The notes beneath the pieces are model-generated. The model saw only the letters and a program-made list of their open reading frames with translations. It had not been told where the DNA came from and made no database searches. Made by a program: the position numbers and the translations under genes. A stretch of DNA of 64,000 nucleotides, taken from contig NC_088873.1 of NCBI RefSeq assembly GCF_032884065.1, positions 32,894,227 through 32,958,226 of the forward strand. The letters are read 5' to 3'. Source of the DNA: Artemia franciscana. Its lineage: Eukaryota > Arthropoda > Branchiopoda > Anostraca > Artemiidae. Below, piece after piece: positions 21,977 through 63,276 of the stretch (positions are counted from its first letter, which is position 1; the number at the start of each line of letters is the position of its first letter).

Positions 21977-22825
21977 AGTTTTTTTTTTTTACTTATGTCC
22001 TGGTCGTCATTTATACTCCCTGTGTCCCGGTGCTTTGTTGATTGCTAATCGAACATTCCTTTTGTCCTGGTCGCTTTCTCTTTGAGTTTCGTCATTTATT
22101 TTTTTCTTTTTTAGTTCTTTTAGTTTTTACCTTTTTTAGTTTTTTTTAGTTTTTTAGATGAAAATTTTTTTTAGTTTTTTCCTTTTTTTCTTTTTAGTTT
22201 TTTATTGGTTTTTACCTTTATTTTAGCTTATTTTGCAGTTTTTTCCTTTTTTTTAGTTTTTTTTTATTTTTTATTTTTTTTAGTTTTTTACCTTTTTTTA
22301 GTTTTTTTAGTTTTTTAGCTTTTTTACTTTTTTTATTAGTTTTTAGTTTTTTTTGTAGTTTTTGCCTTTTTTTAGTTTTTTCAGTTTTTTTTTTAGTTTT
22401 TTATTGGTTTTTACCTTTATTTTAGCTTATTTTTCAGTTTGTTCCTTTTTTTTTAGTTTTTTTTAGTTTTTAGTTTTTTTAGTTTTTTACCTTTTTTTAG
22501 TTTTTTTAGTTTTTTTAGTTTTTTAGCTTTTTTATTTTTTTTATTAGTTTTTAGTTTTTTTTGTAGTTTTTGCCTTTTTTTAGTTTTTTTAGTTTTTTAG
22601 CTTTTTTATTAGTTTTTAGTTTTTTTTGTAGTTTTTGCCTTTTTTTAGTTTTTTTAGTTTTTTAGCTTTTTTATTTTTTTTATTAGTTTTTAGTTTTTTT
22701 TGTAGTTTTTTCCTTTTTTTAGTTTTTTCAGTTTTGACGTCACCTGATCCAGTTTTTTCAGGTGACGTCACCTGATCCATCCATCCACAGACAGACAGAC
22801 AACTTATTTTTATATATATAGAAGA
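21977..22825 (-). mobile_element. 5' half of a second minus-strand non-autonomous Helitron
   Basis: The sequence repeats the AGTTTTTT-rich tract and the TCAGGTGACGTCACCTGA palindrome, and ends with a 5' terminus at 22825. It lacks the 3' hairpin. It abuts the 5' end of the plus-strand element at 22826, giving a near-palindromic junction. Confidence 0.72.
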
Positions 22826-22861
22826 TATATATAAAAATAAGTTGTCTGTCTGTGGATCAGG

Positions 22862-22948
22862 TGACGTCATGTTTCTGTGTCCACTGACGTCATGAAATTA
22901 GTTGTCGTCATTTTTGCTTTGACGGTGACGTCATTCAAGATATTTAAG
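22862..22948 (+). promoter_or_regulatory. Helitron promoter with three TGACGTCA (CRE-type) sites
   Basis: TGACGTCA lies at 22862-22869, 22885-22892 and 22926-22933, followed by a weak TATA-like ATATTTAAG and the ATG at 22975. TGACGTCA is the consensus bound by CREB/ATF bZIP proteins. Function is inferred. Confidence 0.5.
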
Positions 22949-22974
22949 ACATATGTTCACGTAGAAATCTATTA

Positions 22975-23271
22975 ATGTTTAAGTTTACAATGACTGATGA
23001 ACTTACCATGGCAAAAGCCCATGAAGATGCTCAAAGAGTCTATGCCAAAAAACTTGCTACTGATAGAGAAAGTCAGAAAAGAAAGCGTGCCGAGGAATCA
23101 AAAGAACAGCAAGGAAACAGGCTTGAGGCTAAAGAACGCAAAACCGCGCAGTTAGATGAAGATCCACCTGGACAGCGAGAGTCAAAACATATCAAAACTG
23201 AAAATGATAGCGATGATGATTGGGTTTGGGATTTTGACTTGGATAAGGTCATCAATGCCTACCAGATTTAA
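22975..23271 (+). CDS. Small Helitron protein: Rep N-terminus joined to an acidic tail
   Basis: This is a 98-codon ORF starting MFKFTMTDE, the same start as the Rep frame at 58072 in the autonomous Helitron, and sharing [23 protein letters not shown] with it. About residues 11-15 are an insertion relative to that N-terminus. After residue 55 it no longer matches Rep: it becomes acidic (ENDSDDDWVWDFDLDKV) and stops. It has no nuclease or helicase motifs. It has basic clusters suited to nuclear entry and an acidic, aromatic C-terminus. A direct copy at 53166 is broken by one missing C near 53236. It could be a truncated by-product or a small regulator; function unknown. Confidence 0.5.
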   Translation: MFKFTMTDELTMAKAHEDAQRVYAKKLATDRESQKRKRAEESKEQQGNRLEAKERKTAQLDEDPPGQRESKHIKTENDSDDDWVWDFDLDKVINAYQI

Positions 23272-23389
23272 GTTAAAAAAACAAATGTTCGGCGATATGT
23301 ATTTCATAGTGAAGCTGAAAAATAAAGAAGAAAAAGAAAACTGAAAAAAGAAAAATGTAAAAAACTAAAAAATACTAAAAAGAAAAACA

Positions 23390-23550
23390 CTCAAAGAGAA
23401 ATTACAGACCGGGACACAAATGACGACCGGGACAGAGGGAATATAAATAACGACCGGGACACTCAAAGAGAAATTACAGACTGGGATACCGGGACACAAA
23501 TGACGACCGGGACACAGGGAATATAAATGACGACCAGGACACAGGTATTT
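23390..23550 (+). repeat. Minisatellite of GACCGGGACACAAATGAC-type units
   Basis: Repeated words are ATGACGACCGGGACACAGGG, AATATAAATGACGACC and CTCAAAGAGAAATTACAGAC. The same units occur in most Helitrons of the window. The ORFs with repeated VPVVIYIP or CPGRHL peptides are translations of these repeats. Confidence 0.9.
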
Positions 23551-23654
23551 AAGAATATCGTTCAAAGACAAATTTTTAATTGTAAGAAGACCGTTGAAAG
23601 AGAAATTTCTAATTGTAAAATGACTGAAGAACCTACAATGGCAACGGTACCACC

Positions 23655-24975
23655 ATCGAAGTAGATACATAAGCAGTAATGAAGCTGTTTGGCGAATTCT
23701 TTCATTTCCGATACATGAACGTAGTCCAGCTGTTGTTCACTTAGCGGTACATTTACAGAATGGTCAACGTGTTTATTTCTCGGAAACCAACGTGCAACAA
23801 AGAGCCCTGAATCCACCGGATACAAAATTAACAGCTTTTTTTTCGCTTTGCAAAAATGATTCTTTTGCAAAAAAACTGCTGTATACTGAAGTGCCTTCGT
23901 ATTACACGTGGAATACTAAAAATAAAGTATTTGAACGTCGAAAACAGGGTAAGTCAGTCGACGGCCAACCTACCATCTTCAAAGATACCACGATAGGAAG
24001 ACCCTACACCGGTCACCCCAATCAACATGAATGCTTCTTTCTACGCCTGTTTTTGGTGAATGTACCCGGTCCGACATCCTTTGAGTATTTGAGAACTGTA
24101 AACGGTACTATACATGACACTTACCGTAGTGCATGCCAAGCTCTGAATTTATTGGAGAATGACCAACACTGGGATAACTGCATCAATGACGCGTGCGAAA
24201 CGTCAACCCCAAGTGAAATTCGTGCATTGTTTGGCATCATTTTAACAACTTGCTCTCCATCAGCTCCTACAGAGTTATGGGGAAAATATAAGTCAAAAAT
24301 GTCCGTAGATATACTCCATCGAAAACAGTTAGAGACGTCAGATATGACTTTTGATTTTACATCAAAAATTTATAACTACACTTTAGTTATTATAGAAGAT
24401 TTGTGCGTACGTATGGCAAACAAACCTCTTCAGGATTTGGGAATGCCTTCATCTAACCGTATCGCTGCTGTTTCGACATGTGTAGAATTGGATCGTGAAC
24501 AAAGTTACAGTACGAGTGATCTATTGTCGTATGTACAAAATAACATTTCCAAGTTAACGTCGGAACAAAAAGACATTTATGATACGATACTCAATTTCAG
24601 GACGTATACAACTACCTGCTGATTTCTGTAATTTAGTGACGTCCAAAAATGAATTGATTGAAAAAGTATTTCCGAATATTCTAAAAAATTATAAAACATA
24701 ATAAATGGCTAAGTGAAAGAGCGATTCTCGCACCCAAAAATATAGACGTCCACGAAATCAACAATATTGTTTTGACCAAGATTCGAGACCAGGCAGTCCT
24801 TTACAAGTCAATCGACACAGTTTTGGAACCAAATGAAGCGGTTAAGTATGCATGTTTGTTTGTTTGTAAAAAGAGCGTTTGCATATGACGTCATTATTAG
24901 TACATACGGCTTTGTATATGCACAGACAATGGGAAAGCCAAGAATGTTGTATATTCGCAATTTTTACGTAGTTTA
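23655..24975 (+). pseudogene. RepHel fragments with internal deletions (copy 1)
   Basis: The frame from 23792 to 24622 (276 codons) corresponds to the linker between Rep and helicase of the full gene. It is entered by a deletion at about 23668 that joins GAAGTAGATA to GATACATAAGC through a short shared word. Near 24595 a second deletion joins YDTI to the [11 protein letters not shown] region, removing Walker A (GGTGKT), Walker B and the GDFRQ block. Beyond 24700 the frame shifts, and it ends in unrelated Helitron terminal sequence at about 24848. It cannot encode an active helicase. Confidence 0.85.
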
Positions 24976-25360
24976 ACTCCTGCAGACGAAATGAATGCTT
25001 GCCTGAAAAATTCTAATTTATGGGCACACGTAAAAATATTAAAATTAACTACAAATATGCGTGTCCGATTGCAAAACGATGACTCTGGTCAAACATTTTC
25101 AGATCAATTGATGGCAATTGGAAACGGAAAGCTCCCAGTAGTGGGAAAGCCAAAAATGTTGTATATTCGCAATTTTTACTTAGTTTGAAACACATATATA
25201 AATCTATCTATATTCACAGGTGGGACACAGGGACACAACTACAATGGCGCGTAACTAATATGGCGCGTAACGACTTACGCGCGCGGGGGGGCTTGGGGGG
25301 GCGCGAAGCGCCCCACCAACTAGGTGTTAGGGTGGCGCGAAGCGCCACCCCAACAGCTAG

Positions 25361-27372
25361 TGGTACTATACATGACACTTACCGTAGTGCATGCCAAGCT
25401 CTGAATTTATTGGAGAATGACCAACACTGGGATAACTGCATCAACGACGCGTGCGAAACGTCAAACCCAAGTCAAATTCGTGCATTGTTTGGCATCATTT
25501 TAACAACTTGCTCTCCATCAGCTCCTACAGAGTTATGGGAAAAATATAAGTCAAAAATGTCCGAAGATATACTCCATCGAAAACAGTTAGAGACGTCAGA
25601 TATGACTTTTGATTTTACATCAGAAATTTATAACTACACTTTAGTTGTTATAAAAGATTTGTGCGTACGTATGGCAAACAAACCTCTTCAGGATTTGGGA
25701 ATGCCTTCACCTAACCGTATCGCTGCTGTTTCGACATGTGTAGAATTGGATCGTGAACATGTACAAAATAACATTTCCAAGTTAACGTCGGAACAAAAAG
25801 ACATTTATGATACGATAATGCATTGTGTCGATAACAACGTTGGAGAAATTTTCTTTTTGATGCGCCAGGAGGTACTGGTAAAACGTTTGTGATAAAACTG
25901 ATTCTGGCATCAATTCGATCAAAAAATGATATAGCGTTGGCAATTGCGTCGTCCGGAATAGCCGCAACATTGCTGCCTGGTGGAAGAACTGCTCATTCCG
26001 CTTTGAAATTGCCTCTGAACTTGCATTCTACAGAAACTCCCACGTGCAATATTTCCAAATCATCTGGGATGGGTAAAGTATTGCAGCAATGCAAACTTAT
26101 TATTTGGGATGAGTGCACAATGGCACACAAAAAATCGCTCGAGGCTCTGGATCAATGCTTGAAAGATTTGCGAGGGAAGTCGAAACCCTTTGGCAGCACA
26201 TTAATATTGCTTGCGGGAGATTTCAGGCAAACATTACCTATAATACCTAGATCAACTCCTGCAGACGAAATGAATGCTTGCCTGAAAAATTCTAATTTAT
26301 GGGCACACGTAAAAACATTAAAATTAACTACAAATATGCTTGTCCGATTGCAAAACGATGACTCTGGTCAAACATTTTCAGATCAATTGCTGGCAATGGG
26401 AAACGGAAAGCTCCCAGTAGACTCAATTTCAGCACGTATACAACTACCTGCTGATTTCTGTAATTTAGTGACGTCCAAAAATGAATTGATTGAAAAAGTA
26501 TTTCCGAATATTCTAAAAAATTATAAAAATAATAAATGGCTAAGTGAAAGAGCGATTCTCGCACCCAAAAATATAGACGTCCACGAAATCAACAATATTG
26601 TTTTGACCAAGATTCGAGACCAGGCAGTCCTTTACAAGTCAGTCGACACAGTTTTGGAACCAAATGAAGCGGTTAATTATCCATCTGAATTTTTAAATTC
26701 CATAGATCTTTCAGGGTTTCCACCACACGTGCTACACGTGATTGTTTTTCCCATGGACAATTGTACCTTGCATGTTCGAGGGTCGGTAAACCTGACAATC
26801 TATTTATATACAGCGACAATTGGACAGCGAAGAATGTTGTATATTCGCAAGTTTTACGCAGTTAATTTGTATTTTGGAACCAAATGAAGCGGTTAATTAT
26901 CCATCTGAATTTTTAAATTCCATAGATCCTTCAGGGTTTCCACCACACGTGCTACAACTAAAAATAGGCGTACCAATAATACTTTTAAGAAATATCAACC
27001 CACCAAAGCTTTGCAATGGCACGCGACTTGCCGTAAAAAAAAACAATGGAAAACCTAATAGAGGCCACAATCTTGACAGGGCCTTATGAGGGTGAGGCTG
27101 TTCTTATTCCTCGCATTCCCATGATTCCAACGGATCTGCTTTTTCAATTTAAAAGATTGCAATTCCCAATTCGATTAGCATTTGCAACCACCATCAACAA
27201 AGCTCAAGGGCAATCACTAGAAAAATGCGGTATAGATCTTAATACAGATTGCTTTACCAATGTACAATTGTATGTTGCATCTTTGAGGGTCGGTAAACCT
27301 GACAATCTATTTATACGCACAGACAATGGGACAGCGAAGACTGTTGTATATTCACAAGTTTTACGTAGTTAA
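25361..27372 (+). pseudogene. Pif1-type helicase gene fragment of a Helitron (copy 1)
   Basis: The sequence starts at TGGTACTATACATGAC just after another Helitron's CTAG and covers the helicase half of the RepHel gene. A 36-base deletion lies near 25759. One G is missing before GATGCGCCAGGAGG (about 25858), which breaks the frame just before Walker A. The ORF 25889-26887 keeps WDECTMAHK and [10 protein letters not shown]. At about 26747 the sequence jumps to the gene's 3' end, and from 26870 the last 500 bp are repeated to a stop at 27372. It is dead, but young by sequence identity to the full copy. Confidence 0.85.
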
Positions 27373-27399
27373 TTTGTATTGTATCTATCTATCTATCTA

Positions 27400-27725
27400 T
27401 CTATATAAAAACGAGTTGTGTGTATGCATGTTTGTTTGTTTGTAAAAAGAGCGTTTGCATATGACGTCATTATTAGTACATACGGCTTTGTATATGGACA
27501 GACAATGGGAAAGCCAAGAATGTTGTATATTCGCAATTTTTACGTAGTTTGAAACACATATATAAATCTATCTATATTCACAGGTGGGACACAGGGACAC
27601 AACTACAATGGCGCGTAACTAATATGGCGCGTAACGACTTACGCGCGCGGGGGGGATTGGGGGGGGCGCGAAGCGCCCTACTAACTAGGTGTTGGGGTGG
27701 CGCGAGGCGCCACCCCAACAGCTAG
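27400..27725 (+). mobile_element. Short non-autonomous Helitron of about 326 bp (copy 1)
   Basis: It starts at A|TC with TCTATATAAAAACGAGTTGTG, a 5' end unlike the TATATATAAAAATAAGTTG type. It ends with the same paired GC hairpins and CTAG (27722-27725) as the large elements. The interior contains TTTGTTTGTTTGTAAAAAGAG and one TGACGTCA. It sits directly before the autonomous element. It could also be read as the 3' part of the upstream decayed Helitron. Confidence 0.65.
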
Positions 27726-27774
27726 TATATATCTATATATATATAAATAAGTTGTCTGTGGATCGTGGATCAGG

Positions 27775-27855
27775 TGACGTCATGTTTCGGCTGACGTCAT
27801 GAAATTAGTTGCCATCATTTTTGCTTTGAAGGTGACGTCATTCAAGTTATATAAG
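27775..27855 (+). promoter_or_regulatory. Helitron RepHel promoter with three CRE-type sites (copy 1)
   Basis: Three TGACGTCA words are followed by TTATATAAG and the start codons, identical to the arrangement at 57965-58045. Confidence 0.5.
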
Positions 27856-27903
27856 ACATATGTTCGCGTAGAATTCTATTAATGTTTAAGTTTACAATGA
27901 CTG

Positions 27904-30900
27904 ATGAAGATGCTCAAAGAGTCTATGCCAAAAAACTTGCTGCTGATAGAGAAAGTCAGAAAAGAAAGCGTGCCGAGGAATGAAAGCAGACTTGCTGCTA
28001 AAAGAGAAAGTGAAAAAAGAAGGCGTGCCGAGGAAAAAAGAAGGCGTGCCGAGGAATCAAAAGACCAGCAGGGAAACAGGCTTGAGGCTGATAGAGAAAG
28101 AAAGAACAGAAAGCATGCCGAGGAACTACCAGAGCAACGCAGAAGCAGACTTGCTGCTAAAAGAGAAAGTGAAAAAAGAAGGCGTGCCGAGGAATCAAAA
28201 GACCAGCAGGGAAACAGGCTTGCTGCTGATAGAGAAAGAAAGAACAGAAAGCATGCCGAGGAACTACCAGAGCAACGCAGAAGCAGACTTGCTGCTAAAA
28301 GAGAAAGTGAAAAAAGAAGGCGTGCCGAGGAATCAAAAGACCAGCAGGGAAACAGGCTTGCTGCTGATAGAGAAAGTAAGAAAAGAAAGCGTGCCGAGGA
28401 ATCAGAGCAATCTGAAAGTTATCGCCTGGCATTCAGGTACAACCCAGTCGATGATTATAGCTTGAGTAGATGTGTTCAAATCGGGACAATGTCTAAAATT
28501 TGTCCCTATTGCAAGGCCTTGAAATTCAATGGTGAAACAATGGGAATGTGTTGCACCTCAGGAAAAGTTAAACTTCCTCTATTGGCTGCACCACCAGAGC
28601 CATTGAAGACTTTCCTTACTGGAACTACGTCAGAATCTAAGCGTTTTTTGTCAAAAATCAGACAATACAACTCATGTTTCCAAATGACGTCGTTTGGAGC
28701 CCAAATCGAAAATCTAGATCAATTTATGTCTACTTTCAAAGTAAAAGGGCAAATTTATCATAAAGCAGGGTCCCTTCTACCATTCTCAGGCGAGAATCAT
28801 AAATTTTTACAATTGTACTTCATCAGTGATAGAAATTCTGAATTGAATGCACGTTGCGAAATTTCTCCCAACGTTGAAAGGACAATCGTTTCCCAATTGC
28901 AACATCTTTTCCACGAAAATAATAAGTTAGTGCGTCTGTTCAAAACAGCCATCGATTTGATGCCTACTGATACTCATAAAATTGTTATTTCCGCTGACAA
29001 AACGCCTCCTGGCCAACATGTGCGTAGATACAATGCTCCGACTATCGACGAAGTGGCAATCGTTATGGTCGGTGATCAGTTTTTACCTCGAGATATTATT
29101 CTACATAAGCGAAACGCTCAGTTGTTAAGAATTGCTGAAACTCATCGATGCTACGATGCCCTACAATATCCTATCATTTTTTGGGATGGAGCCGACGGCT
29201 ATCACTTTAATATTAAATTGATGAATCCAGTCACTAACAAAGAAATGAATAAGAAATGCAGTGCAATGCATTATTATTCCTATAGACTAATGATTCGGCA
29301 GGATGAAGAAAATTATATTTTAAAATGCCGTGAATTGTTTCACCAATTTGTCGTGGATATGTATGCTAAAATTGAATCAGAACGTTTGCTATATATCCGC
29401 CTGAATCAGACCAAGCTCCGCTCTGAACAATACATTCATTTGCGAGATGCAGTTATAAATGACGGTAATACCACAAACGTTGGAAGATTAACAATTTTAC
29501 CTTCGTCATATGCTGGCAGTCCCCGTCATATGCATGAATATGCTCAAGATGCTATTGCGTATGTTCGTCTCTATGGTCGTCCAGATTTATTTATTACATT
29601 TACATGTAATCAATCTTGGACGAGATACTGCAGCTTTTACTTCAAGGACAATCGGCGGTTCATAGGCATGACATTACGGCACGTGTCTTCCGGCAAAAGT
29701 TGAAATCACTGATAAACTACCTTGTAAAACATGAAGTGTTTGGGTCAGTGCGATGCTGGATGTACTCAGTGGAATGGCAAAAACGAGGTTTGCCACACGC
29801 ACATATACTAATCTGGCTACATAAAAAAATTACTTCAAACGAAATTGATGATGTGATTTCCGCTGAAATACCTGATAAAAATGTCGATAAGGGGTTACAT
29901 GATATTATTGTAAAAAATATGATACATGGACCTTGCGGTGCACTGAACGAAAATTCACCATGCATGGCCAAAGGAAGGTGCACAAAGCAATATCCTCGAC
30001 TTTTAGTACCCAAAATAATTACTGGCAATGATGGTTACCCACAATATAGAAGAAGATCTACTGAAGATGGCGGTAAAACAGCAATAATAAAGAAGCGTAA
30101 CGGTACCACCATCGAAGTAGATAACCAGTGGGTTGTTCCATATTCCCCTTTATTATCAAAAACATTTAATGCACACATAAACGTTGAATACTGTAACTCC
30201 GTAAAGGCAATCAAATACATATGTAAATACGTCAACAAAGGCAGTGACATGGCAGTTTTTGGCTTGCAGTCCGAAATCAAAGATTTCGATGAAATCGTAG
30301 AATATCAGGCTGGAAGATACATAAGCAGTAATGAAGCTGTTTGGCGAATTCTTTCATTTCCGATACATGAACGTAGTCCAGCTGTTGTTCACTTAGCGGT
30401 ACATTTACAGAATGGTCAACGTGTTTATTTCACGGAAACCAACGTGCAACAAAGAGTCCTGAATCCACCGGATACAACATTAACAGCTTTTTTTTCGCTT
30501 TGCAAAAATGATTCTTTTGCAAAAAAACTGCTGTATACTGAAGTGCCTTCGTATTACACGTGGAATACTAAAAATAAAGTATTTGAACGTCGAAAACAGG
30601 GTAAGTCAGTCGACGGCCAACCTACCATCTTCAAAGATACCACGATAGGAAGACTCTACACCGTTCACCCCAATCAACATGAATGCTTCTTTCTACGCCT
30701 GCTTTTGGTGAATGTACTCGGTCCGACATCCTTTGAGTATTTGAGGACTGTAAATGGTACTATACATGACACTTACCGTAGTGCATGCCAAGCTCTGAAT
30801 TTATTGGAGAATGACCAACACTGGGATAACTGCATCAATGACGCGTGCGAAACGTCAACCCCAAGTCAAATTCGTGCATTGTTTGGCATCATTTTAACAA

Positions 30901-32577
30901 CTTGCTCTCCATCAGCTCCTACAGATTTATGGGAAAAATATAAGTCAAAAATGTCCGAAGATATACTTCATCGAAAACAGTTAGAGACGTCAGACATGAC
31001 TTTTGATTTTACATCAGAAATTTATAACTACACTTTAGTTGTTATAGAAGATTTGTGCATAAGTATGGCAAACAAACCTCTTCAGGATTTGGGAATGCCT
31101 TCATCTAACCGTATCGCTGCTGTTTCGACATGTGTAGAATTGGATCATGAACAAAGTTACAGTACGAGTGATCTATTGTCGTATGTACAAAATAACATTT
31201 CCAAGTTAACGTCGGAACAAAAAGACATTTATGATACGATAATGCATTGTGTCGATAACAACGTTGGAGAAATTTTCTTTTTGGATGCGCCAGGAGGTAC
31301 TGGTAAAACGTTTGTGATAAAACTGATTCTGGCATCAATTCGATCTAAAAATGTTATAGCGTTGGCAATTGCGTCGTCCGGAATAGCCGCAACATTGCTG
31401 CCTGGTGGAAGAACTGCTCATTCCGCTTTAAAATTGCCTCTGAACTTGCATTCTACAGAAACTCCCACGTGCAATATTTCCAAATCATCTGGGATGGGTA
31501 AAGTATTGCAGCAATGCAAACTTATTATTTGGGATGAGTGCACAATGGCACACAAAAAATCGCTCGAGGCTCTGGATCAATGCTTGAAAGATTTGCGAGG
31601 GAAGTCGAAACCCTTTGGCAGCACCTTAATATTGCTTGCGGGAGATTTCAGGCAAACATTACCTATAATACCTAGATCAACTCCTGCAGACGAAATGAAT
31701 GCTTGCCTGAAAAATTCTAATTTATGGGCACACGTAAAAACATTAAAATTAACTACAAATATGCGTGTCCGATTGCAAAACGATGACTCTGGTCAAACAT
31801 TTTCAGATCAATTGCTGGCAATGGGAAACGGAAAGCTCCCAGTAGACTCAATTTCAGGACGTATACAACTACCTGCTGATTTCTGTAATTTAGTGACGTC
31901 CAAAAATGAATTGATTGAAAAAGTATTTCCGAATATTCTAAAAAATTATAAAAATAATAAATGGCTAAGTGAAAGAGCGATTCTCGCACCCAAAAATATA
32001 GACGTCCACGAAATCAACAATATTGTTTTGACCAAGATTCAAGACCAGGCAGTCCTTTACAAGTCAGTCGACACAGTTTTGGAACCAAATGAAGCGGTTA
32101 ATTATCCATCTGAATTTTTAAATTCCATAGATCTTTCAGGGTTTCCACCACACGTGCTACAACTAAAAATAGGCGTACCAATAATACTTTTAAGAAATAT
32201 AAACCCACCAAAGCTTTGCAATGGCACTCGACTTGCCGTAAAAAAAAACAATGGAAAACCTAATAGAGGCCACAATCCTGACAGGGCCTTTTGAGGGTGA
32301 GGCTGTTCTTATTCCTCGCATTCCCATGATTCCAACAGATCTGCCTTTTCAATTTAAAAGATTGCAATTCCCAATTCGATTAGCATTTGCAATCACCATT
32401 AACAAAGCTCAAGGTCAATCATTAGAAAAATGTGGTATTGATCTTAATACTGATTGTTTTTCCCATGGACAATTGTACGTTGCATGTTCGAGGGTCGGTA
32501 AACCTGACAATCTATTTATATGCAGCGAGAATTGGACAGCGAAGAATGTTGTATATTCGCAAGTTTTACGCAGTTAA
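27904..32577 (+). pseudogene. RepHel (HUH nuclease-Pif1 helicase) gene, copy 1, frameshifted
   Basis: This is the same gene as 58094-62768. Relative to that copy, one G is missing in the GGG at about 29617-29619, which splits the reading frame into 27904-29703 and 29616-32294. The break falls in the [13 protein letters not shown] motif of the Rep domain. The HAH nuclease motif, the two-tyrosine motif, GGTGKT and WDEC are intact in the second frame. A run of nine A at 32240-32248 shifts the frame again before the last 109 codons, as in the other copy. If the two loci are one, the missing G is probably a sequencing or allelic difference. Confidence 0.88.
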
Positions 32578-32585
32578 TTTGTATT

Positions 32586-33034: not shown

Positions 33035-33134
33035 NNNNNNNNNNNNNNNNNNNNNNNNNNNNNNNNNNNNNNNNNNNNNNNNNNNNNNNNNNNNNNNNNN
33101 NNNNNNNNNNNNNNNNNNNNNNNNNNNNNNNNNN
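33035..33134. other. Assembly gap of 100 N
   Basis: Exactly 100 N, the usual placeholder for a join of unknown length. It truncates copy 1 of the duplicated 10.7-kb block. Confidence 0.99.
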
Positions 33135-51089: not shown

Positions 51090-51116
51090 TAGATAGATAG
51101 ATGGATACAATACAAA

Positions 51117-52416: not shown

Positions 52417-52516
52417 NNNNNNNNNNNNNNNNNNNNNNNNNNNNNNNNNNNNNNNNNNNNNNNNNNNNNNNNNNNNNNNNNNNNNNNNNNNNNNNNNNNN
52501 NNNNNNNNNNNNNNNN
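52417..52516. other. Assembly gap of 100 N
   Basis: Exactly 100 N. The duplicated 10.7-kb block restarts at the first base after it. Confidence 0.99.
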
Positions 52517-53016
52517 TACTTTTTTTATTAGTTTTTAGTTTTTTTTGTAGTTTTTGCCTTTTTTAGTTTTTTCAGTTTTTTTTTTAGTTTTTTATTGGTT
52601 TTTACCTTTATTTTAGCTTATTTTTCAGTTTGTTCCTTTTTTTTTAGTTTTTTTTAGTTTTTAGTTTTTTTAGTTTTTTACCTTTTTTTAGTTTTTTTAG
52701 TTTTTTTAGTTTTTTAGCTTTTTTATTTTTTTTATTAGTTTTTAGTTTTTTTTGTAGTTTTTGCCTTTTTTTAGTTTTTTTAGTTTTTTAGCTTTTTTAT
52801 TAGTTTTTAGTTTTTTTGTAGTTTTTGCCTTTTTTTAGTTTTTTTAGTTTTTTAGCTTTTTTATTTTTTTTATTAGTTTTTAGTTTTTTTTTGTAGTTTT
52901 TTCCTTTTTTTAGTTTTTTCAGTTTTGACGTCACCTGATCCAGTTTTTTCAGGTGACGTCACCTGATCCATCCATCCACAGACAGACAGACAACTTATTT
53001 TTATATATATAGAAGA
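52517..53016 (-). mobile_element. 5' half of a minus-strand Helitron (copy of 22326-22825)
   Basis: An AGTTTTTT-rich tract, the TCAGGTGACGTCACCTGA palindrome and the 5' end at 53016, matching copy 1 apart from single-base length changes in T runs. Confidence 0.8.
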
Positions 53017-53165
53017 TATATATAAAAATAAGTTGTCTGTCTGTGGATCAGGTGACGTCATGTTTCTGTGTCCACTGACGTCATGAAATTAGTTGTCGTC
53101 ATTTTTGCTTTGACGGTGACGTCATTCAAGATATTTAAGACATATGTTCACGTAGAAATCTATTA

Positions 53166-53461
53166 ATGTTTAAGTTTACAATGACTGATGAACTTACCAT
53201 GGCAAAAGCCCATGAAGATGCTCAAAGAGTCTATGCAAAAAACTTGCTACTGATAGAGAAAGTCAGAAAAGAAAGCGTGCCGAGGAATCAAAAGAACAGC
53301 AAGGAAACAGGCTTGAGGCTAAAGAACGCAAAACCGCGCAGTTAGATGAAGATCCACCTGGACAGCGAGAGTCAAAACATATCAAAACTGAAAATGATAG
53401 CGATGATGATTGGGTTTGGGATTTTGACTTGGATAAGGTCATCAATGCCTACCAGATTTAA
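53166..53461 (+). pseudogene. Small Rep-N/acidic-tail ORF, copy 2, frameshifted
   Basis: Counterpart of 22975-23271. TATGCAAAA here replaces TATGCCAAAA, and the loss of one C breaks the frame at about codon 24. The rest is unchanged. Confidence 0.8.
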
Positions 53462-53844
53462 GTTAAAAAAACAAATGTTCGGCGATATGTATTTCATAGT
53501 GAAGCTGAAAAATAAAGAAGAAAAAGAAAACTGAAAAAAGAAAAATGTAAAAAACTAAAAAATACTAAAAAGAAAAACACTCAAAGAGAAATTACAGACC
53601 GGGACACAAATGACGACCGGGACAGAGGGAATATAAATAACGACCGGGACACTCAAAGAGAAATTACAGACTGGGATACCGGGACACAAATGACGACCGG
53701 GACACAGGGAATATAAATGACGACCAGGACACATGTATTTAAGAATATCGTTCAAAGACAAATTTTTAATTGTAAGAAGACCGTTGAAAGAGAAATTTCT
53801 AATTGTAAAATGACTGAAGAACCTACAATGGCAACGGTACCACC

Positions 53845-55165
53845 ATCGAAGTAGATACATAAGCAGTAATGAAGCTGTTTGGCGAATTCTTTCATTTCCG
53901 ATACATGAACGTAGTCCAGCTGTTGTTCACTTAGCGGTACATTTACAGAATGGTCAACGTGTTTATTTCTCGGAAACCAACGTGCAACAAAGAGCCCTGA
54001 ATCCACCGGATACAAAATTAACAGCTTTTTTTTCGCTTTGCAAAAATGATTCTTTTGCAAAAAAACTGCTGTATACTGAAGTGCCTTCGTATTACACGTG
54101 GAATACTAAAAATAAAGTATTTGAACGTCGAAAACAGGGTAAGTCAGTCGACGGCCAACCTACCATCTTCAAAGATACCACGATAGGAAGACCCTACACC
54201 GGTCACCCCAATCAACATGAATGCTTCTTTCTACGCCTGTTTTTGGTGAATGTACCCGGTCCGACATCCTTTGAGTATTTGAGAACTGTAAACGGTACTA
54301 TACATGACACTTACCGTAGTGCATGCCAAGCTCTGAATTTATTGGAGAATGACCAACACTGGGATAACTGCATCAATGACGCGTGCGAAACGTCAACCCC
54401 AAGTGAAATTCGTGCATTGTTTGGCATCATTTTAACAACTTGCTCTCCATCAGCTCCTACAGAGTTATGGGGAAAATATAAGTCAAAAATGTCCGTAGAT
54501 ATACTCCATCGAAAACAGTTAGAGACGTCAGATATGACTTTTGATTTTACATCAAAAATTTATAACTACACTTTAGTTATTATAGAAGATTTGTGCGTAC
54601 GTATGGCAAACAAACCTCTTCAGGATTTGGGAATGCCTTCATCTAACCGTATCGCTGCTGTTTCGACATGTGTAGAATTGGATCGTGAACAAAGTTACAG
54701 TACGAGTGATCTATTGTCGTATGTACAAAATAACATTTCCAAGTTAACGTCGGAACAAAAAGACATTTATGATACGATACTCAATTTCAGGACGTATACA
54801 ACTACCTGCTGATTTCTGTAATTTAGTGACGTCCAAAAATGAATTGATTGAAAAAGTATTTCCGAATATTCTAAAAAATTATAAAAAATAATAAATGGCT
54901 AAGTGAAAGAGCGATTCTCGCACCCAAAAATATAGACGTCCACGAAATCAACAATATTGTTTTGACCAAGATTCGAGACCAGGCAGTCCTTTACAAGTCA
55001 ATCGACACAGTTTTGGAACCAAATGAAGCGGTTAAGTATGCATGTTTGTTTGTTTGTAAAAAGAGCGTTTGCATATGACGTCATTATTAGTACATACGGC
55101 TTTGTATATGCACAGACAATGGGAAAGCCAAGAATGTTGTATATTCGCAATTTTTACGTAGTTTA
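53845..55165 (+). pseudogene. RepHel fragments with internal deletions (copy 2)
   Basis: Counterpart of 23655-24975, with the same two deletion joins; the ORF 53982-54812 is identical in length to copy 1. It lacks the Walker motifs. Confidence 0.85.
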
Positions 55166-55550
55166 ACTCCTGCAGACGAAATGAATGCTTGCCTGAAAAA
55201 TTCTAATTTATGGGCACACGTAAAAATATTAAAATTAACTACAAATATGCGTGTCCGATTGCAAAACGATGACTCTGGTCAAACATTTTCAGATCAATTG
55301 ATGGCAATTGGAAACGGAAAGCTCCCAGTAGTGGGAAAGCCAAAAATGTTGTATATTCGCAATTTTTACTTAGTTTGAAACACATATATAAATCTATCTA
55401 TATTCACAGGTGGGACACAGGGACACAACTACAATGGCGCGTAACTAATATGGCGCGTAACGACTTACGCGCGCGGGGGGGCTTGGGGGGGCGCGAAGCG
55501 CCCCACCAACTAGGTGTTAGGGTGGCGCGAAGCGCCACCCCAACAGCTAG

Positions 55551-57562
55551 TGGTACTATACATGACACTTACCGTAGTGCATGCCAAGCTCTGAATTTAT
55601 TGGAGAATGACCAACACTGGGATAACTGCATCAACGACGCGTGCGAAACGTCAAACCCAAGTCAAATTCGTGCATTGTTTGGCATCATTTTAACAACTTG
55701 CTCTCCATCAGCTCCTACAGAGTTATGGGAAAAATATAAGTCAAAAATGTCCGAAGATATACTCCATCGAAAACAGTTAGAGACGTCAGATATGACTTTT
55801 GATTTTACATCAGAAATTTATAACTACACTTTAGTTGTTATAAAAGATTTGTGCGTACGTATGGCAAACAAACCTCTTCAGGATTTGGGAATGCCTTCAC
55901 CTAACCGTATCGCTGCTGTTTCGACATGTGTAGAATTGGATCGTGAACATGTACAAAATAACATTTCCAAGTTAACGTCGGAACAAAAAGACATTTATGA
56001 TACGATAATGCATTGTGTCGATAACAACGTTGGAGAAATTTTCTTTTTGATGCGCCAGGAGGTACTGGTAAAACGTTTGTGATAAAACTGATTCTGGCAT
56101 CAATTCGATCAAAAAATGATATAGCGTTGGCAATTGCGTCGTCCGGAATAGCCGCAACATTGCTGCCTGGTGGAAGAACTGCTCATTCCGCTTTGAAATT
56201 GCCTCTGAACTTGCATTCTACAGAAACTCCCACGTGCAATATTTCCAAATCATCTGGGATGGGTAAAGTATTGCAGCAATGCAAACTTATTATTTGGGAT
56301 GAGTGCACAATGGCACACAAAAAATCGCTCGAGGCTCTGGATCAATGCTTGAAAGATTTGCGAGGGAAGTCGAAACCCTTTGGCAGCACATTAATATTGC
56401 TTGCGGGAGATTTCAGGCAAACATTACCTATAATACCTAGATCAACTCCTGCAGACGAAATGAATGCTTGCCTGAAAAATTCTAATTTATGGGCACACGT
56501 AAAAACATTAAAATTAACTACAAATATGCTTGTCCGATTGCAAAACGATGACTCTGGTCAAACATTTTCAGATCAATTGCTGGCAATGGGAAACGGAAAG
56601 CTCCCAGTAGACTCAATTTCAGCACGTATACAACTACCTGCTGATTTCTGTAATTTAGTGACGTCCAAAAATGAATTGATTGAAAAAGTATTTCCGAATA
56701 TTCTAAAAAATTATAAAAATAATAAATGGCTAAGTGAAAGAGCGATTCTCGCACCCAAAAATATAGACGTCCACGAAATCAACAATATTGTTTTGACCAA
56801 GATTCGAGACCAGGCAGTCCTTTACAAGTCAGTCGACACAGTTTTGGAACCAAATGAAGCGGTTAATTATCCATCTGAATTTTTAAATTCCATAGATCTT
56901 TCAGGGTTTCCACCACACGTGCTACACGTGATTGTTTTTCCCATGGACAATTGTACCTTGCATGTTCGAGGGTCGGTAAACCTGACAATCTATTTATATA
57001 CAGCGACAATTGGACAGCGAAGAATGTTGTATATTCGCAAGTTTTACGCAGTTAATTTGTATTTTGGAACCAAATGAAGCGGTTAATTATCCATCTGAAT
57101 TTTTAAATTCCATAGATCCTTCAGGGTTTCCACCACACGTGCTACAACTAAAAATAGGCGTACCAATAATACTTTTAAGAAATATCAACCCACCAAAGCT
57201 TTGCAATGGCACGCGACTTGCCGTAAAAAAAAACAATGGAAAACCTAATAGAGGCCACAATCTTGACAGGGCCTTATGAGGGTGAGGCTGTTCTTATTCC
57301 TCGCATTCCCATGATTCCAACGGATCTGCTTTTTCAATTTAAAAGATTGCAATTCCCAATTCGATTAGCATTTGCAACCACCATCAACAAAGCTCAAGGG
57401 CAATCACTAGAAAAATGCGGTATAGATCTTAATACAGATTGCTTTACCAATGTACAATTGTATGTTGCATCTTTGAGGGTCGGTAAACCTGACAATCTAT
57501 TTATACGCACAGACAATGGGACAGCGAAGACTGTTGTATATTCACAAGTTTTACGTAGTTAA
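55551..57562 (+). pseudogene. Pif1-type helicase gene fragment (copy 2)
   Basis: Counterpart of 25361-27372. It has the same 36-base deletion, the same missing G before Walker A, and the same repeated 3' end ending at 57562. Confidence 0.85.
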
Positions 57563-57589
57563 TTTGTATTGTATCTATCTATCTATCTA

Positions 57590-57915
57590 TCTATATAAAA
57601 ACGAGTTGTGTGTATGCATGTTTGTTTGTTTGTAAAAAGAGCGTTTGCATATGACGTCATTATTAGTACATACGGCTTTGTATATGGACAGACAATGGGA
57701 AAGCCAAGAATGTTGTATATTCGCAATTTTTACGTAGTTTGAAACACATATATAAATCTATCTATATTCACAGGTGGGACACAGGGACACAACTACAATG
57801 GCGCGTAACTAATATGGCGCGTAACGACTTACGCGCGCGGGGGGGATTGGGGGGGGCGCGAAGCGCCCTACTAACTAGGTGTTGGGGTGGCGCGAGGCGC
57901 CACCCCAACAGCTAG
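57590..57915 (+). mobile_element. Short non-autonomous Helitron (copy 2)
   Basis: Counterpart of 27400-27725: TCTATATAAAAACGAGTTG start, paired GC hairpins, CTAG at 57912-57915. Confidence 0.65.
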
Positions 57916-57964
57916 TATATATCTATATATATATAAATAAGTTGTCTGTGGATCGTGGATCAGG

Positions 57965-58045
57965 TGACGTCATGTTTCGGCTGACGTCATGAAATTAGTT
58001 GCCATCATTTTTGCTTTGAAGGTGACGTCATTCAAGTTATATAAG
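57965..58045 (+). promoter_or_regulatory. RepHel promoter: three TGACGTCA sites and a TATA box
   Basis: TGACGTCA occurs at 57965-57972, 57982-57989 and 58023-58030, then TTATATAAG at 58037-58045, and the in-frame ATG codons at 58072 and 58087. The first site lies within TCAGGTGACGTCA. The order (bZIP sites, TATA, short leader) is that of a Pol II promoter. Binding by CREB/ATF proteins is inferred from the consensus. Confidence 0.55.
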
Positions 58046-58093
58046 ACATATGTTCGCGTAGAATTCTATTAATGTTTAAGTTTACAATGACTG

Positions 58094-61000
58094 ATGAAGA
58101 TGCTCAAAGAGTCTATGCCAAAAAACTTGCTGCTGATAGAGAAAGTCAGAAAAGAAAGCGTGCCGAGGAATGAAAGCAGACTTGCTGCTAAAAGAGAAAG
58201 TGAAAAAAGAAGGCGTGCCGAGGAAAAAAGAAGGCGTGCCGAGGAATCAAAAGACCAGCAGGGAAACAGGCTTGAGGCTGATAGAGAAAGAAAGAACAGA
58301 AAGCATGCCGAGGAACTACCAGAGCAACGCAGAAGCAGACTTGCTGCTAAAAGAGAAAGTGAAAAAAGAAGGCGTGCCGAGGAATCAAAAGACCAGCAGG
58401 GAAACAGGCTTGCTGCTGATAGAGAAAGAAAGAACAGAAAGCATGCCGAGGAACTACCAGAGCAACGCAGAAGCAGACTTGCTGCTAAAAGAGAAAGTGA
58501 AAAAAGAAGGCGTGCCGAGGAATCAAAAGACCAGCAGGGAAACAGGCTTGCTGCTGATAGAGAAAGTAAGAAAAGAAAGCGTGCCGAGGAATCAGAGCAA
58601 TCTGAAAGTTATCGCCTGGCATTCAGGTACAACCCAGTCGATGATTATAGCTTGAGTAGATGTGTTCAAATCGGGACAATGTCTAAAATTTGTCCCTATT
58701 GCAAGGCCTTGAAATTCAATGGTGAAACAATGGGAATGTGTTGCACCTCAGGAAAAGTTAAACTTCCTCTATTGGCTGCACCACCAGAGCCATTGAAGAC
58801 TTTCCTTACTGGAACTACGTCAGAATCTAAGCGTTTTTTGTCAAAAATCAGACAATACAACTCATGTTTCCAAATGACGTCGTTTGGAGCCCAAATCGAA
58901 AATCTAGATCAATTTATGTCTACTTTCAAAGTAAAAGGGCAAATTTATCATAAAGCAGGGTCCCTTCTACCATTCTCAGGCGAGAATCATAAATTTTTAC
59001 AATTGTACTTCATCAGTGATAGAAATTCTGAATTGAATGCACGTTGCGAAATTTCTCCCAACGTTGAAAGGACAATCGTTTCCCAATTGCAACATCTTTT
59101 CCACGAAAATAATAAGTTAGTGCGTCTGTTCAAAACAGCCATCGATTTGATGCCTACTGATACTCATAAAATTGTTATTTCCGCTGACAAAACGCCTCCT
59201 GGCCAACATGTGCGTAGATACAATGCTCCGACTATCGACGAAGTGGCAATCGTTATGGTCGGTGATCAGTTTTTACCTCGAGATATTATTCTACATAAGC
59301 GAAACGCTCAGTTGTTAAGAATTGCTGAAACTCATCGATGCTACGATGCCCTACAATATCCTATCATTTTTTGGGATGGAGCCGACGGCTATCACTTTAA
59401 TATTAAATTGATGAATCCAGTCACTAACAAAGAAATGAATAAGAAATGCAGTGCAATGCATTATTATTCCTATAGACTAATGATTCGGCAGGATGAAGAA
59501 AATTATATTTTAAAATGCCGTGAATTGTTTCACCAATTTGTCGTGGATATGTATGCTAAAATTGAATCAGAACGTTTGCTATATATCCGCCTGAATCAGA
59601 CCAAGCTCCGCTCTGAACAATACATTCATTTGCGAGATGCAGTTATAAATGACGGTAATACCACAAACGTTGGAAGATTAACAATTTTACCTTCGTCATA
59701 TGCTGGCAGTCCCCGTCATATGCATGAATATGCTCAAGATGCTATTGCGTATGTTCGTCTCTATGGTCGTCCAGATTTATTTATTACATTTACATGTAAT
59801 CAATCTTGGGACGAGATACTGCAGCTTTTACTTCAAGGACAATCGGCGGTTCATAGGCATGACATTACGGCACGTGTCTTCCGGCAAAAGTTGAAATCAC
59901 TGATAAACTACCTTGTAAAACATGAAGTGTTTGGGTCAGTGCGATGCTGGATGTACTCAGTGGAATGGCAAAAACGAGGTTTGCCACACGCACATATACT
60001 AATCTGGCTACATAAAAAAATTACTTCAAACGAAATTGATGATGTGATTTCCGCTGAAATACCTGATAAAAATGTCGATAAGGGGTTACATGATATTATT
60101 GTAAAAAATATGATACATGGACCTTGCGGTGCACTGAACGAAAATTCACCATGCATGGCCAAAGGAAGGTGCACAAAGCAATATCCTCGACTTTTAGTAC
60201 CCAAAATAATTCCTGGCAATGATGGTTACCCACAATATAGAAGAAGATCTACTGAAGATGGCGGTAAAACAGCAATAATAAAGAAGCGTAACGGTACCAC
60301 CATCGAAGTAGATAACCAGTGGGTTGTTCCATATTCCCCTTTATTATCAAAAACATTTAATGCACACATAAACGTTGAATACTGTAACTCCGTAAAGGCA
60401 ATCAAATACATATGTAAATACGTCAACAAAGGCAGTGACATGGCAGTTTTTGGCTTGCAGTCCGAAATCAAAGATTTCGATGAAATCGTAGAATATCAGG
60501 CTGGAAGATACATAAGCAGTAATGAAGCTGTTTGGCGAATTCTTTCATTTCCGATACATGAACGTAGTCCAGCTGTTGTTCACTTAGCGGTACATTTACA
60601 GAATGGTCAACGTGTTTATTTCACGGAAACCAACGTGCAACAAAGAGTCCTGAATCCACCGGATACAACATTAACAGCTTTTTTTTCGCTTTGCAAAAAT
60701 GATTCTTTTGCAAAAAAACTGCTGTATACTGAAGTGCCTTCGTATTACACGTGGAATACTAAAAATAAAGTATTTGAACGTCGAAAACAGGGTAAGTCAG
60801 TCGACGGCCAACCTACCATCTTCAAAGATACCACGATAGGAAGACTCTACACCGTTCACCCCAATCAACATGAATGCTTCTTTCTACGCCTGCTTTTGGT
60901 GAATGTACTCGGTCCGACATCCTTTGAGTATTTGAGGACTGTAAATGGTACTATACATGACACTTACCGTAGTGCATGCCAAGCTCTGAATTTATTGGAG

Positions 61001-62768
61001 AATGACCAACACTGGGATAACTGCATCAATGACGCGTGCGAAACGTCAACCCCAAGTCAAATTCGTGCATTGTTTGGCATCATTTTAACAACTTGCTCTC
61101 CATCAGCTCCTACAGATTTATGGGAAAAATATAAGTCAAAAATGTCCGAAGATATACTTCATCGAAAACAGTTAGAGACGTCAGACATGACTTTTGATTT
61201 TACATCAGAAATTTATAACTACACTTTAGTTGTTATAGAAGATTTGTGCATAAGTATGGCAAACAAACCTCTTCAGGATTTGGGAATGCCTTCATCTAAC
61301 CGTATCGCTGCTGTTTCGACATGTGTAGAATTGGATCATGAACAAAGTTACAGTACGAGTGATCTATTGTCGTATGTACAAAATAACATTTCCAAGTTAA
61401 CGTCGGAACAAAAAGACATTTATGATACGATAATGCATTGTGTCGATAACAACGTTGGAGAAATTTTCTTTTTGGATGCGCCAGGAGGTACTGGTAAAAC
61501 GTTTGTGATAAAACTGATTCTGGCATCAATTCGATCTAAAAATGTTATAGCGTTGGCAATTGCGTCGTCCGGAATAGCCGCAACATTGCTGCCTGGTGGA
61601 AGAACTGCTCATTCCGCTTTAAAATTGCCTCTGAACTTGCATTCTACAGAAACTCCCACGTGCAATATTTCCAAATCATCTGGGATGGGTAAAGTATTGC
61701 AGCAATGCAAACTTATTATTTGGGATGAGTGCACAATGGCACACAAAAAATCGCTCGAGGCTCTGGATCAATGCTTGAAAGATTTGCGAGGGAAGTCGAA
61801 ACCCTTTGGCAGCACCTTAATATTGCTTGCGGGAGATTTCAGGCAAACATTACCTATAATACCTAGATCAACTCCTGCAGACGAAATGAATGCTTGCCTG
61901 AAAAATTCTAATTTATGGGCACACGTAAAAACATTAAAATTAACTACAAATATGCGTGTCCGATTGCAAAACGATGACTCTGGTCAAACATTTTCAGATC
62001 AATTGCTGGCAATGGGAAACGGAAAGCTCCCAGTAGACTCAATTTCAGGACGTATACAACTACCTGCTGATTTCTGTAATTTAGTGACGTCCAAAAATGA
62101 ATTGATTGAAAAAGTATTTCCGAATATTCTAAAAAATTATAAAAATAATAAATGGCTAAGTGAAAGAGCGATTCTCGCACCCAAAAATATAGACGTCCAC
62201 GAAATCAACAATATTGTTTTGACCAAGATTCAAGACCAGGCAGTCCTTTACAAGTCAGTCGACACAGTTTTGGAACCAAATGAAGCGGTTAATTATCCAT
62301 CTGAATTTTTAAATTCCATAGATCTTTCAGGGTTTCCACCACACGTGCTACAACTAAAAATAGGCGTACCAATAATACTTTTAAGAAATATAAACCCACC
62401 AAAGCTTTGCAATGGCACTCGACTTGCCGTAAAAAAAAACAATGGAAAACCTAATAGAGGCCACAATCCTGACAGGGCCTTTTGAGGGTGAGGCTGTTCT
62501 TATTCCTCGCATTCCCATGATTCCAACAGATCTGCCTTTTCAATTTAAAAGATTGCAATTCCCAATTCGATTAGCATTTGCAATCACCATTAACAAAGCT
62601 CAAGGTCAATCATTAGAAAAATGTGGTATTGATCTTAATACTGATTGTTTTTCCCATGGACAATTGTACGTTGCATGTTCGAGGGTCGGTAAACCTGACA
62701 ATCTATTTATATGCAGCGAGAATTGGACAGCGAAGAATGTTGTATATTCGCAAGTTTTACGCAGTTAA
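58094..62768 (+). CDS. RepHel: HUH-endonuclease and Pif1-family helicase of a Helitron
   Basis: This is the rolling-circle transposase of the element. The open frame 58094-62485 has 1463 codons. Residues 30-170 are Lys/Arg/Glu-rich tandem repeats of about 42 residues; a zinc-binding CPYC-type segment starts at 200; the Rep motif [12 protein letters not shown] is at 563-574; the metal-binding HAH is at 632-634 within [10 protein letters not shown]; and the catalytic tyrosines are Y772 and Y776 (YICKY). In the helicase, GGTGKT is at 1131-1136, WDEC at 1210-1213, then [11 protein letters not shown] run of nine A (62431-62439) shifts the frame, so the last 109 codons ([25 protein letters not shown]) are read in the next frame to 62768. 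The likely native start (ATG 58072 or 58087, [13 protein letters not shown]) is in another frame, closed by TGA near 58171. It is therefore near-intact, with two frame breaks. Confidence 0.9.
58178..58600 (+). repeat. In-gene tandem repeat of about 126 bp (basic Rep N-terminus)
   Basis: Three near-identical units encode [20 protein letters not shown] followed by [20 protein letters not shown]. The second reading frame over this stretch is also open for 161 codons because of the repeats; that is a shadow. Confidence 0.9.
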
Positions 62769-62776
62769 TTTGTATT

Positions 62777-63276
62777 TCGGAACCAAATGAAGCGGTTAAT
62801 TATCCATCTGAATTTTTAAATTCCATAGATCCTTCAGGGTGTCCACCACACCTGCTACAACTAAAAATAGGCGTACCAATAATACTTTTAAGAAATATCA
62901 ACCCACCAAAGCTTTGCAATGGCACGCGACTTGCCGTAAAAAAAAAACAATGGAAAACCTAATAGATGCCACAATCTTGACAGGGCCTTATGAGGGTGAG
63001 GCTGTTCTTATTCCTCGCATTCCCATGATTCCAACGGATCTGCTTTTTCAATTTAAAAGATTGCAATTCCCAATTCGATTAGCATTTGCAACCACCATCA
63101 ACAAAGCTCAAGGGCAATCACTAGAAAAATGCGGTATAGATCTTAATACAGATTGCTTTACCAATGTACAATTGTATGTTGCATCTTTGAGGGTCGGTAA
63201 ACCTGACAATCTATTTATACGCACAGACAATGGGACAGCGAAGACTGTTGTATATTCACAAGTTTTACGTAGTTAA
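62777..63276 (+). repeat. Partial tandem copy of the helicase 3' end
   Basis: It restarts at GGAACCAAATGAAGCGG, after the stop of the RepHel gene, and repeats the last 500 bp with a handful of base changes and a run of ten A. It ends with its own stop at 63276. The same arrangement is at 26870-27372 and 57060-57562. Confidence 0.92.

What the first reader, a model, noticed from the sequence alone, without database searches (positions are those of the whole stretch)
22326..63225. Two near-identical 10.7-kb blocks, one ending at a gap and the other starting at a gap
22326-33034 and 52517-63225 align at an almost constant offset (30190-30191), with only isolated differences seen (for example near 23046, 23543, 24697, 29619 and 30024). 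The first copy ends at the first base of one 100-N gap and the second starts at the last base of the other. A biological duplication has no reason to stop exactly at both gaps. Two overlapping ends of neighbouring contigs would. The block 33135-52416 would then have been placed between them in error. Shared breakpoints deep inside nested Helitrons make independent insertion impossible as an explanation.
Basis: partly seen in the sequence, partly recalled or inferred. Interest (0 to 1): 0.85.

Follow-up and report, generated by a model that had tools for sequence, protein, structure and literature searches.

The report
Unmerged contig overlap, not a duplication
The two near-identical 10.7-kb blocks are very probably the same stretch of an animal chromosome assembled twice because two contig ends were never merged, with a foreign contig wedged between them; this is a known kind of genome-assembly error and not new biology.

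Summary
In detail: 22325-33034 and 52517-63225 align over 10,712 columns with 3 substitutions and 5 one-base indels, from the first base after gap 2 to the last base before gap 1. The dovetail alone proves little: the block lies in young Helitrons (38 other near-identical places for each of two probes; lists capped at 40), and such repeats break contigs.
(1) The composite T-rich array | N1 | N2 | E1 matches full length only at these two places (2 of 40 scored). Both share 19 clean private substitutions against 8 and 9 relatives read, and differ by 1 substitution in 4,550 bp of E1, against 10-49 between other copies. This excludes independent insertions, not a real duplication.
(2) The flank pieces tested on either side have one full-length place each.
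(3) Block B's left half matches chromosome contig C2 (0.53% substitutions) and unplaced C2742 (1.32%); both run on past B's left end with the same sequence, so B is probably a misplaced version of a C2 locus.
No reads were available; a real, very recent duplication is not excluded (about 7%). Known kind: 'false homotype duplication' at contig boundaries.

The parts
1..33034 (+). Part of contig 'A' inside the window (no gap), ending inside Helitron E1
   Evidence: no N before 33035; 16300-19900 has one full-length place in the genome (1-16299 not tested)
22325..33034 (+). Copy 1 of the overlap (right end of contig A)
   Evidence: alignment with 52517-63225: 3 substitutions, 5 one-base indels in 10,712 columns
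22325..22816 (-). T-rich array of an inverted Helitron-type element, about 66% T; the copies differ here by three one-base T slips
   Evidence: inverted Helitron 5'-terminus motif at 22796-22815
22825..25360 (+). N1, non-autonomous Helitron; at least 38 other places in the genome; both window copies lack about 196 bp (at 23662) that 8 of 8 fetched relatives have
25361..27725 (+). N2, truncated Helitron related to E1 (E1 3025-4431 and 4721-5708), with its own CTAG 3' end
27732..33034 (+). E1 in copy 1: autonomous Helitron, positions 1-5304 of 5708, cut by gap 1; its Rep/helicase frame is split by a one-base lack at 29617
33035..33134 (.). Gap 1, 100 N
33135..52416 (.). Block B, a 19.3-kb contig placed between the two copies; 33135-42380 matches C2:21198231-21207472 (-) with 0.53% substitutions and unplaced C2742:11216-20567 (two pieces) with 1.32%
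34882..36690 (-). 602-aa ORF of block B, PDE12-like (2',5'-phosphodiesterase 12), open at the same length in all three assembled versions
42950..52416 (.). Repeat-rich right part of block B: Helitron ends, T/A-rich arrays and a satellite; ends at gap 2 inside an inverted truncated Helitron (50553-52416)
52417..52516 (.). Gap 2, 100 N
52517..63225 (+). Copy 2 of the overlap (left end of contig C, which runs to 70728 in window coordinates)
   Evidence: next 100-N gap at L029:6729-6828
57922..63629 (+). E1 complete in copy 2: 5708 bp, 5' TC, 3' hairpin then CTAG
58094..62485 (+). 1463-aa open frame: Helitron_like_N, PIF1 helicase and Pif1 2B domains; closest solved relative is the Helraiser transposase

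Best explanation
The two blocks are one genomic stretch assembled twice. Contig A ran rightward through a T-rich array, N1 and N2 into the multi-copy Helitron E1, and stopped there. Contig C (18.2 kb) starts in the same T-rich array, runs through the same N1, N2 and E1 and out into DNA found once in the assembly. Their 10.7-kb dovetail was not merged. Scaffolding then put the 19.3-kb contig B between them with 100-N gaps. B is very probably an extra (allelic) version of a locus on contig C2, so it does not belong there. SHOWN: the dovetail, the uniqueness of the composite among scored places, the shared private states, one full-length place for each outer flank piece tested, and the other versions of B's left half. 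INFERRED: that A and C are one molecule, that B was misplaced, and why the assembler broke there (E1 with many near-identical copies, plus the T-rich array).
For: Dovetail from first base after gap 2 to last base before gap 1, 99.93% identical. A 5,975-bp probe (22326-28300) matches full length at 2 of 40 scored places, the window copies; the 38 others match only parts, chiefly N1. Copy 1 and copy 2 differ at 1 of 4,550 positions in E1; 36 pairs among nine other copies differ at 10-49, and copy 1 differs from each of the nine at 24-36. Private states shared by both copies: N1, 9 substitutions and 3 indels (one of 196 bp) against 8 of 8 relatives read; E1, 10 substitutions beyond 28450 and a 69-bp lack against 9 of 9 read. 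The odd base is in copy 2 at 23045, 23544 and 30021 and in copy 1 at 29617, where all relatives read have the other base (8 of 8 for the first two, 9 of 9 for the last two), as expected of scattered consensus errors. Three T slips in about 490 bp of T-rich array. Outer flank pieces each with one full-length place. B's left half matches C2 and C2742, both continuing past B's left end with one shared flank.
Against: No reads, depth or Hi-C were available. The shared private states and the unique composite exclude independent insertions but fit a real duplication equally well; single odd bases could also be mutations after a real duplication. Three assembled versions of B's locus exist (B-C2 0.53%, B-C2742 1.32%, C2-C2742 1.16%), more than one diploid would give, so B might be a real paralogue that could lie on C11. 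A real duplication longer than the reads could also leave contig ends inside each copy. At 24697 the two copies differ but the 8 relatives have no base there, so that difference cannot be polarised. The right half of B could not be placed: one search was swamped by repeats. Two other gaps looked at (C109; C11 at window coordinate 70729, with only 3.2 kb known to its right) show no such dovetail, so I have no sign that this error is common here.
Confidence: 0.87

Rival explanations
1. A true, very recent segmental duplication: the composite exists twice on C11, about 30 kb apart, and the assembler broke inside both copies because they are near-identical and longer than its reads. B lies between them and is a genuine paralogue of the C2 locus.
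For: Three distinct versions of B's locus are assembled, one more than a diploid should give. Gaps are where real near-identical duplications break assemblies. B keeps an intact 602-aa frame. The shared private states fit a duplication as well as an overlap.
Against: Both gaps would have to hide the true breakpoints. The copies (0.03% substitutions) are about 19 to 47 times closer than the versions of B's locus are to each other (0.53-1.32%), so the duplication would be younger than ordinary allele-like differences. Neither outer flank piece tested is duplicated.
Confidence: 0.07
2. Two haplotypes of one locus (a 'heterotype' false duplication): contig A's end and contig C's start come from different parental chromosomes.
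For: Allelic-looking duplicates do occur in this assembly (B, C2, C2742).
Against: Three substitutions in 10.7 kb is far below the 0.5-1.3% seen between the versions of B's locus, though divergence can vary along a genome. The outer flank pieces tested have no second version in the assembly.
Confidence: 0.05
3. Two independent Helitron insertions or two unrelated contig ends in the same repeat family, matching only because the family is young.
For: A 1-kb E1 probe and N1 each have at least 38 other places, and 3'-to-5' Helitron abutments recur at 38 other places.
Against: The whole composite has no third full-length place among 40 scored. The copies share private substitutions and deletions across N1 and E1, and differ at 1 position of E1 where other pairs differ at 10-49.
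Confidence: 0.01

Closest known systems
False homotype duplication, 'overlapping sequences at contig boundaries' (Vertebrate Genomes Project; PMC8081667, passages read)
   Same: Same-locus sequence duplicated at contig boundaries, dovetail geometry, a gap between the copies; the length (10.7 kb) could be that of a corrected long read (inference).
   Different: There the two copies are adjacent with one gap; here a third contig of 19.3 kb stands between them with two gaps.
Duplicated overlapping contigs (Kelley and Salzberg 2010; PMC2864568, passages read)
   Different: Their cases are ascribed to haplotype divergence; here the copies are far closer than the allele-like versions of block B.
False duplications catalogued by comparing older and VGP assemblies (PMC9516828, passages read)
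   Different: Their read-depth, linked-read and k-mer criteria could not be tested here.
Helraiser-type Helitrons (PMC5876387, passages read; PDB 7lcc)
   Same: E1 has 5' TC, a 3' hairpin and CTAG, and one Rep/helicase frame close to Helraiser transposase; [quoted passage not shown]
   Different: Only the repeat that probably broke the assembly; not itself the finding.

Membership tests
False homotype duplication at contig boundaries | Duplicate runs exactly to the contig ends on both sides (dovetail) | tested here: met
   copy 1 ends at 33034 before gap 1, copy 2 starts at 52517 after gap 2
False homotype duplication at contig boundaries | Both copies come from one locus (not two members of a repeat family, nor a real duplicate) | tested here: inconclusive
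   two family members excluded: composite at 2 of 40 scored places, shared private states, 1 against 10-49 substitutions; a real duplicate is made unlikely but not excluded
False homotype duplication at contig boundaries | A gap lies between the duplicated pair on one scaffold | tested here: met
   two 100-N gaps and an intervening contig
False homotype duplication at contig boundaries | No haplotype-specific variants (homotype rather than heterotype) | tested here: inconclusive
   0.03% substitutions against 0.53-1.32% between versions of B's locus, but no read k-mers
False homotype duplication at contig boundaries | Read depth or k-mer copy number too low for two copies | not testable with these tools
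   no reads held
True segmental duplication | Breakpoints of the duplicate visible against other sequence | tested here: not met
   left end of copy 2 and right end of copy 1 are both gaps
Helitron (E1), Helraiser-like | 5' TC, 3' subterminal hairpin followed by CTRR | tested here: met
   shared 5' TCTATATA in 8 of 9 other copies, L015 reading TATATATA; upstream of it the 9 are unrelated or TA runs (L013 and L019 show only TA in the stretch aligned). Hairpin and CTAG in 8 of 10 right-end loci; in L016 and L028 the match to E1 stops before it
Helitron (E1), Helraiser-like | Rep (Helitron_like_N) plus PIF1 helicase in one protein | tested here: met
   Pfam E 2.2e-57 and 1.3e-66; Helraiser structure 7lcc E 1.2e-233

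The most novel reading that the evidence does not exclude
A real duplication of a nested Helitron cluster so recent that it is younger than ordinary allelic divergence, flanking a freshly acquired third copy of a PDE12-gene block from another chromosome: Helitron-associated interchromosomal duplication caught in the act.
Probability: 0.05. Interest if true: 0.5.

Novelty: not a real feature. Interest (0 to 1): 0.12.

Why it matters
Counted as real, the window would yield a false segmental duplication, a false second Helitron cluster (with a 1463-aa transposase frame split in copy 1), and a PDE12-like gene probably on the wrong chromosome. The case also gives a usable lesson: a dovetail in a repeat is not evidence of overlap by itself; shared private bases across several nested elements, outer flanks found once, and a foreign intervening contig together make it likely, and reads must settle it.

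Tried and rejected
Independent insertions of one family: rejected by shared private states and by the composite having no third full-length place among 40 scored.

Uniqueness of the N2|E1 junction type: I first took it as locus-specific from the flanks of 9 other E1 copies. One search showed the same type at 38 other places (88-97%), so I dropped it as an argument.

Gene continuity across A and C: a Med26-domain ORF lies in C's right flank; for A I only listed open frames (39 of 70-122 aa) and did not scan them, so nothing can be said.

Right half of B (42381-52416) against the genome: swamped by repeats, even the window's own place was not listed; uninformative.

Other gaps as a base rate: two other gaps (C109 and C11 at window coordinate 70729) were tested by self-comparison and show no comparable dovetail; the gap in C2 (L038) was not tested in this way. 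Too few for a rate.

N1|N2 junction alone (25100-25700): not completed; the claim of uniqueness rests. RNA families and tRNAs: none found in the window. Paper search for Helitrons with assembly gaps: listing only, nothing used. PMC5148889: passages seen, not used as evidence.

Full report
The window is C11:32894227-32958226 of an unnamed 1.27-Gb genome in 6468 contigs. Its genes look animal (a PDE12-like ORF in block B; a Med26-domain ORF to the right); no species was identified.

OBSERVATION. Two 100-N gaps, 33035-33134 and 52417-52516, cut the window into A (1-33034), B (33135-52416) and C (from 52517; C goes on to the next 100-N gap at L029:6729, that is window coordinate 70729). 22325-33034 and 52517-63225 align over 10,712 columns with 3 substitutions and 5 single-base indels, three of the indels being T-run slips in a T-rich array. 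The alignment begins at C's first base and ends at A's last base.

WHY THE DOVETAIL ALONE IS NOT ENOUGH. A 1-kb probe from E1 (30000-31000) hits 40 of 40 scored places at about 100% (1708 candidates; two of the 40 are the window's own). Contigs break in such repeats, and any two contig ends lying in one repeat in the same direction look like a dovetail. So I asked whether the overlap holds characters of a single locus.

ANATOMY. The overlap runs: T-rich array of an inverted Helitron-type element; N1, a non-autonomous Helitron (22825-25360); N2, a truncated Helitron (25361-27725); and E1, an autonomous Helitron (27732 to the gap in copy 1; complete, 57922-63629, in copy 2). E1's ends were fixed from other copies: a shared 5' TCTATATA in 8 of 9, preceded by unrelated sequence or TA runs; and a hairpin followed by CTAG in 8 of 10 right-hand loci (in the other two the match to E1 stops earlier). 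Copy 2 holds a 1463-aa open frame with Helitron_like_N, PIF1 and Pif1 2B domains, closest among solved structures to Helraiser; in copy 1 it is split at 29617.

SAME ORIGIN. A probe of 22326-28300 matches full length at 2 of 40 scored places (9644 candidates), both in the window; the other 38 match parts, chiefly N1. Against 8 fetched N1 relatives (of at least 38), both window copies share 9 private substitutions and 3 private indels, one a 196-bp lack. Against 9 E1 relatives they share 10 private substitutions beyond 28450 and a 69-bp lack, with further states in a tandem-repeat stretch that aligns less surely. Of the 11 other E1 places fetched, two on small contigs were left out of this comparison because only one side had been fetched. 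The two window copies differ at 1 of 4,550 compared positions of E1; the 36 pairs among the nine others differ at 10-49, and copy 1 differs from each of them at 24-36. Where the window copies differ outside T runs, the odd base is in copy 2 three times and in copy 1 once, and none of the relatives read has it; one site (24697) cannot be polarised because the relatives have no base there. This fits scattered consensus errors in two assemblies of one stretch. It would also fit a few mutations after a very recent real duplication: these data exclude independent insertions, not duplication.

FLANKS. 16300-19900 (left of copy 1) and the first 6.7 kb right of the window (right of copy 2, still in contig C) each have one full-length place in the assembly, their own; short inner parts match dispersed repeats. 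Contig A left of 16300 was not tested. In what was tested, nothing outside the composite is duplicated.

BLOCK B. In contrast, 33135-42380 matches full length C2:21198231-21207472 and, in two pieces, unplaced contig C2742. Substitutions: B-C2 49 of 9,234 (0.53%), B-C2742 122 of 9,224 (1.32%), C2-C2742 107 of 9,221 (1.16%), besides 11, 20 and 20 indel events. C2 and C2742 run on past B's left end with one shared flank (634 bp, 1 mismatch), so B's left end is a cut inside a locus assembled elsewhere. All three versions keep a 602-aa PDE12-like frame. B's right end lies in an inverted truncated Helitron. The simplest reading is a haplotig of a C2 locus put on C11 by error. Against this: three distinct versions are one more than a diploid gives, so pooled DNA, a chimeric consensus or a true paralogue must be considered. 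B's repeat-rich right half could not be placed.

VERDICT. One stretch assembled twice plus a misplaced contig is the best explanation (0.87 for the overlap; about 0.75, my estimate, for B being misplaced from C2). A true duplication (0.07) would need both breakpoints hidden in gaps and an age below that of the allele-like differences seen at B's locus. In the terms of PMC8081667 (passages read) this is a false homotype duplication with 'overlapping sequences at contig boundaries'; PMC9516828 (passages) lists gaps between duplicated pairs among the characteristics of false duplications, and PMC2864568 (passages) describes duplicated overlapping contigs. What differs here is the extra contig between the copies. 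Read depth, spanning reads and Hi-C, which would settle it, were not available. Two other gaps that I could look at show no such dovetail.

IN PASSING. The Helitron 3'-end/5'-end abutment seen at 27725-27732 recurs: the other 38 of 40 scored places span it at 88-97% (3330 candidates). I read 14 of those 38: 8 show a 5' TC after the CTAG, with spacers, read by eye, of 0 (L044, L053), 4 (L052, L057), 6 (L046), 11 (L050) and 12 bp (L045, L051); the other 6 have no TC and run on as TATATA. The variable spacers suggest several separate events, though TA slippage could add to the variety. Head-to-tail junctions and tandem arrays are already described for plant and bat Helitrons (PMC5876387, passages).

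Noticed in passing
27717-27760 and 57907-57950; L044-L057: Helitron 3' ends (hairpin, CTAG) closely followed by a Helitron 5' end: the other 38 of 40 scored places span such an abutment; 14 of 38 read, 8 with a clear 5' TC and spacers of 0-12 bp. Frequent head-to-tail Helitron tandems in an animal genome.
   Followed up: partly
57922-63629: Young autonomous Helraiser-like Helitron with an open 1463-aa frame; nine other copies differ from each other by 0.2-1.1%, so the family was probably active recently.
   Followed up: partly
L010, L012, L020, L022, L026: In 5 of 10 right-end loci further Helitron ends follow E1's 3' end, some inverted, often across TA runs, as if TA runs next to Helitrons were preferred targets.
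   Followed up: no
33135-42950; L042, L043: PDE12-like locus assembled three times (C11, C2, unplaced C2742) with 0.5-1.3% differences; in the ORF 2 synonymous and 2 non-synonymous changes (B-C2), 9 and 11 (B-C2742), 9 and 13 (C2-C2742).
   Followed up: partly
11620-13288 and 14520-16274: Tandem arrays with 240-bp (about 7 copies) and 160-bp (11 copies) units, 95-97% alike.
   Followed up: no
45546-47237 and about 4425-6016: Satellite of about 300 bp in block B with a relative about 82% alike at best in contig A.
   Followed up: no
L038:1264-3763 (C2): A 2500-N gap beside the C2 version of block B, in the Helitron-rich part, unlike the 100-N gaps of the window.
   Followed up: no
L020:8548-8647 (C109): Another 100-N gap: the left contig ends in an inverted copy of its own Helitron stretch and the right one starts in the same kind of T-rich array as copy 2, so these repeats may be habitual break points.
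   Followed up: no
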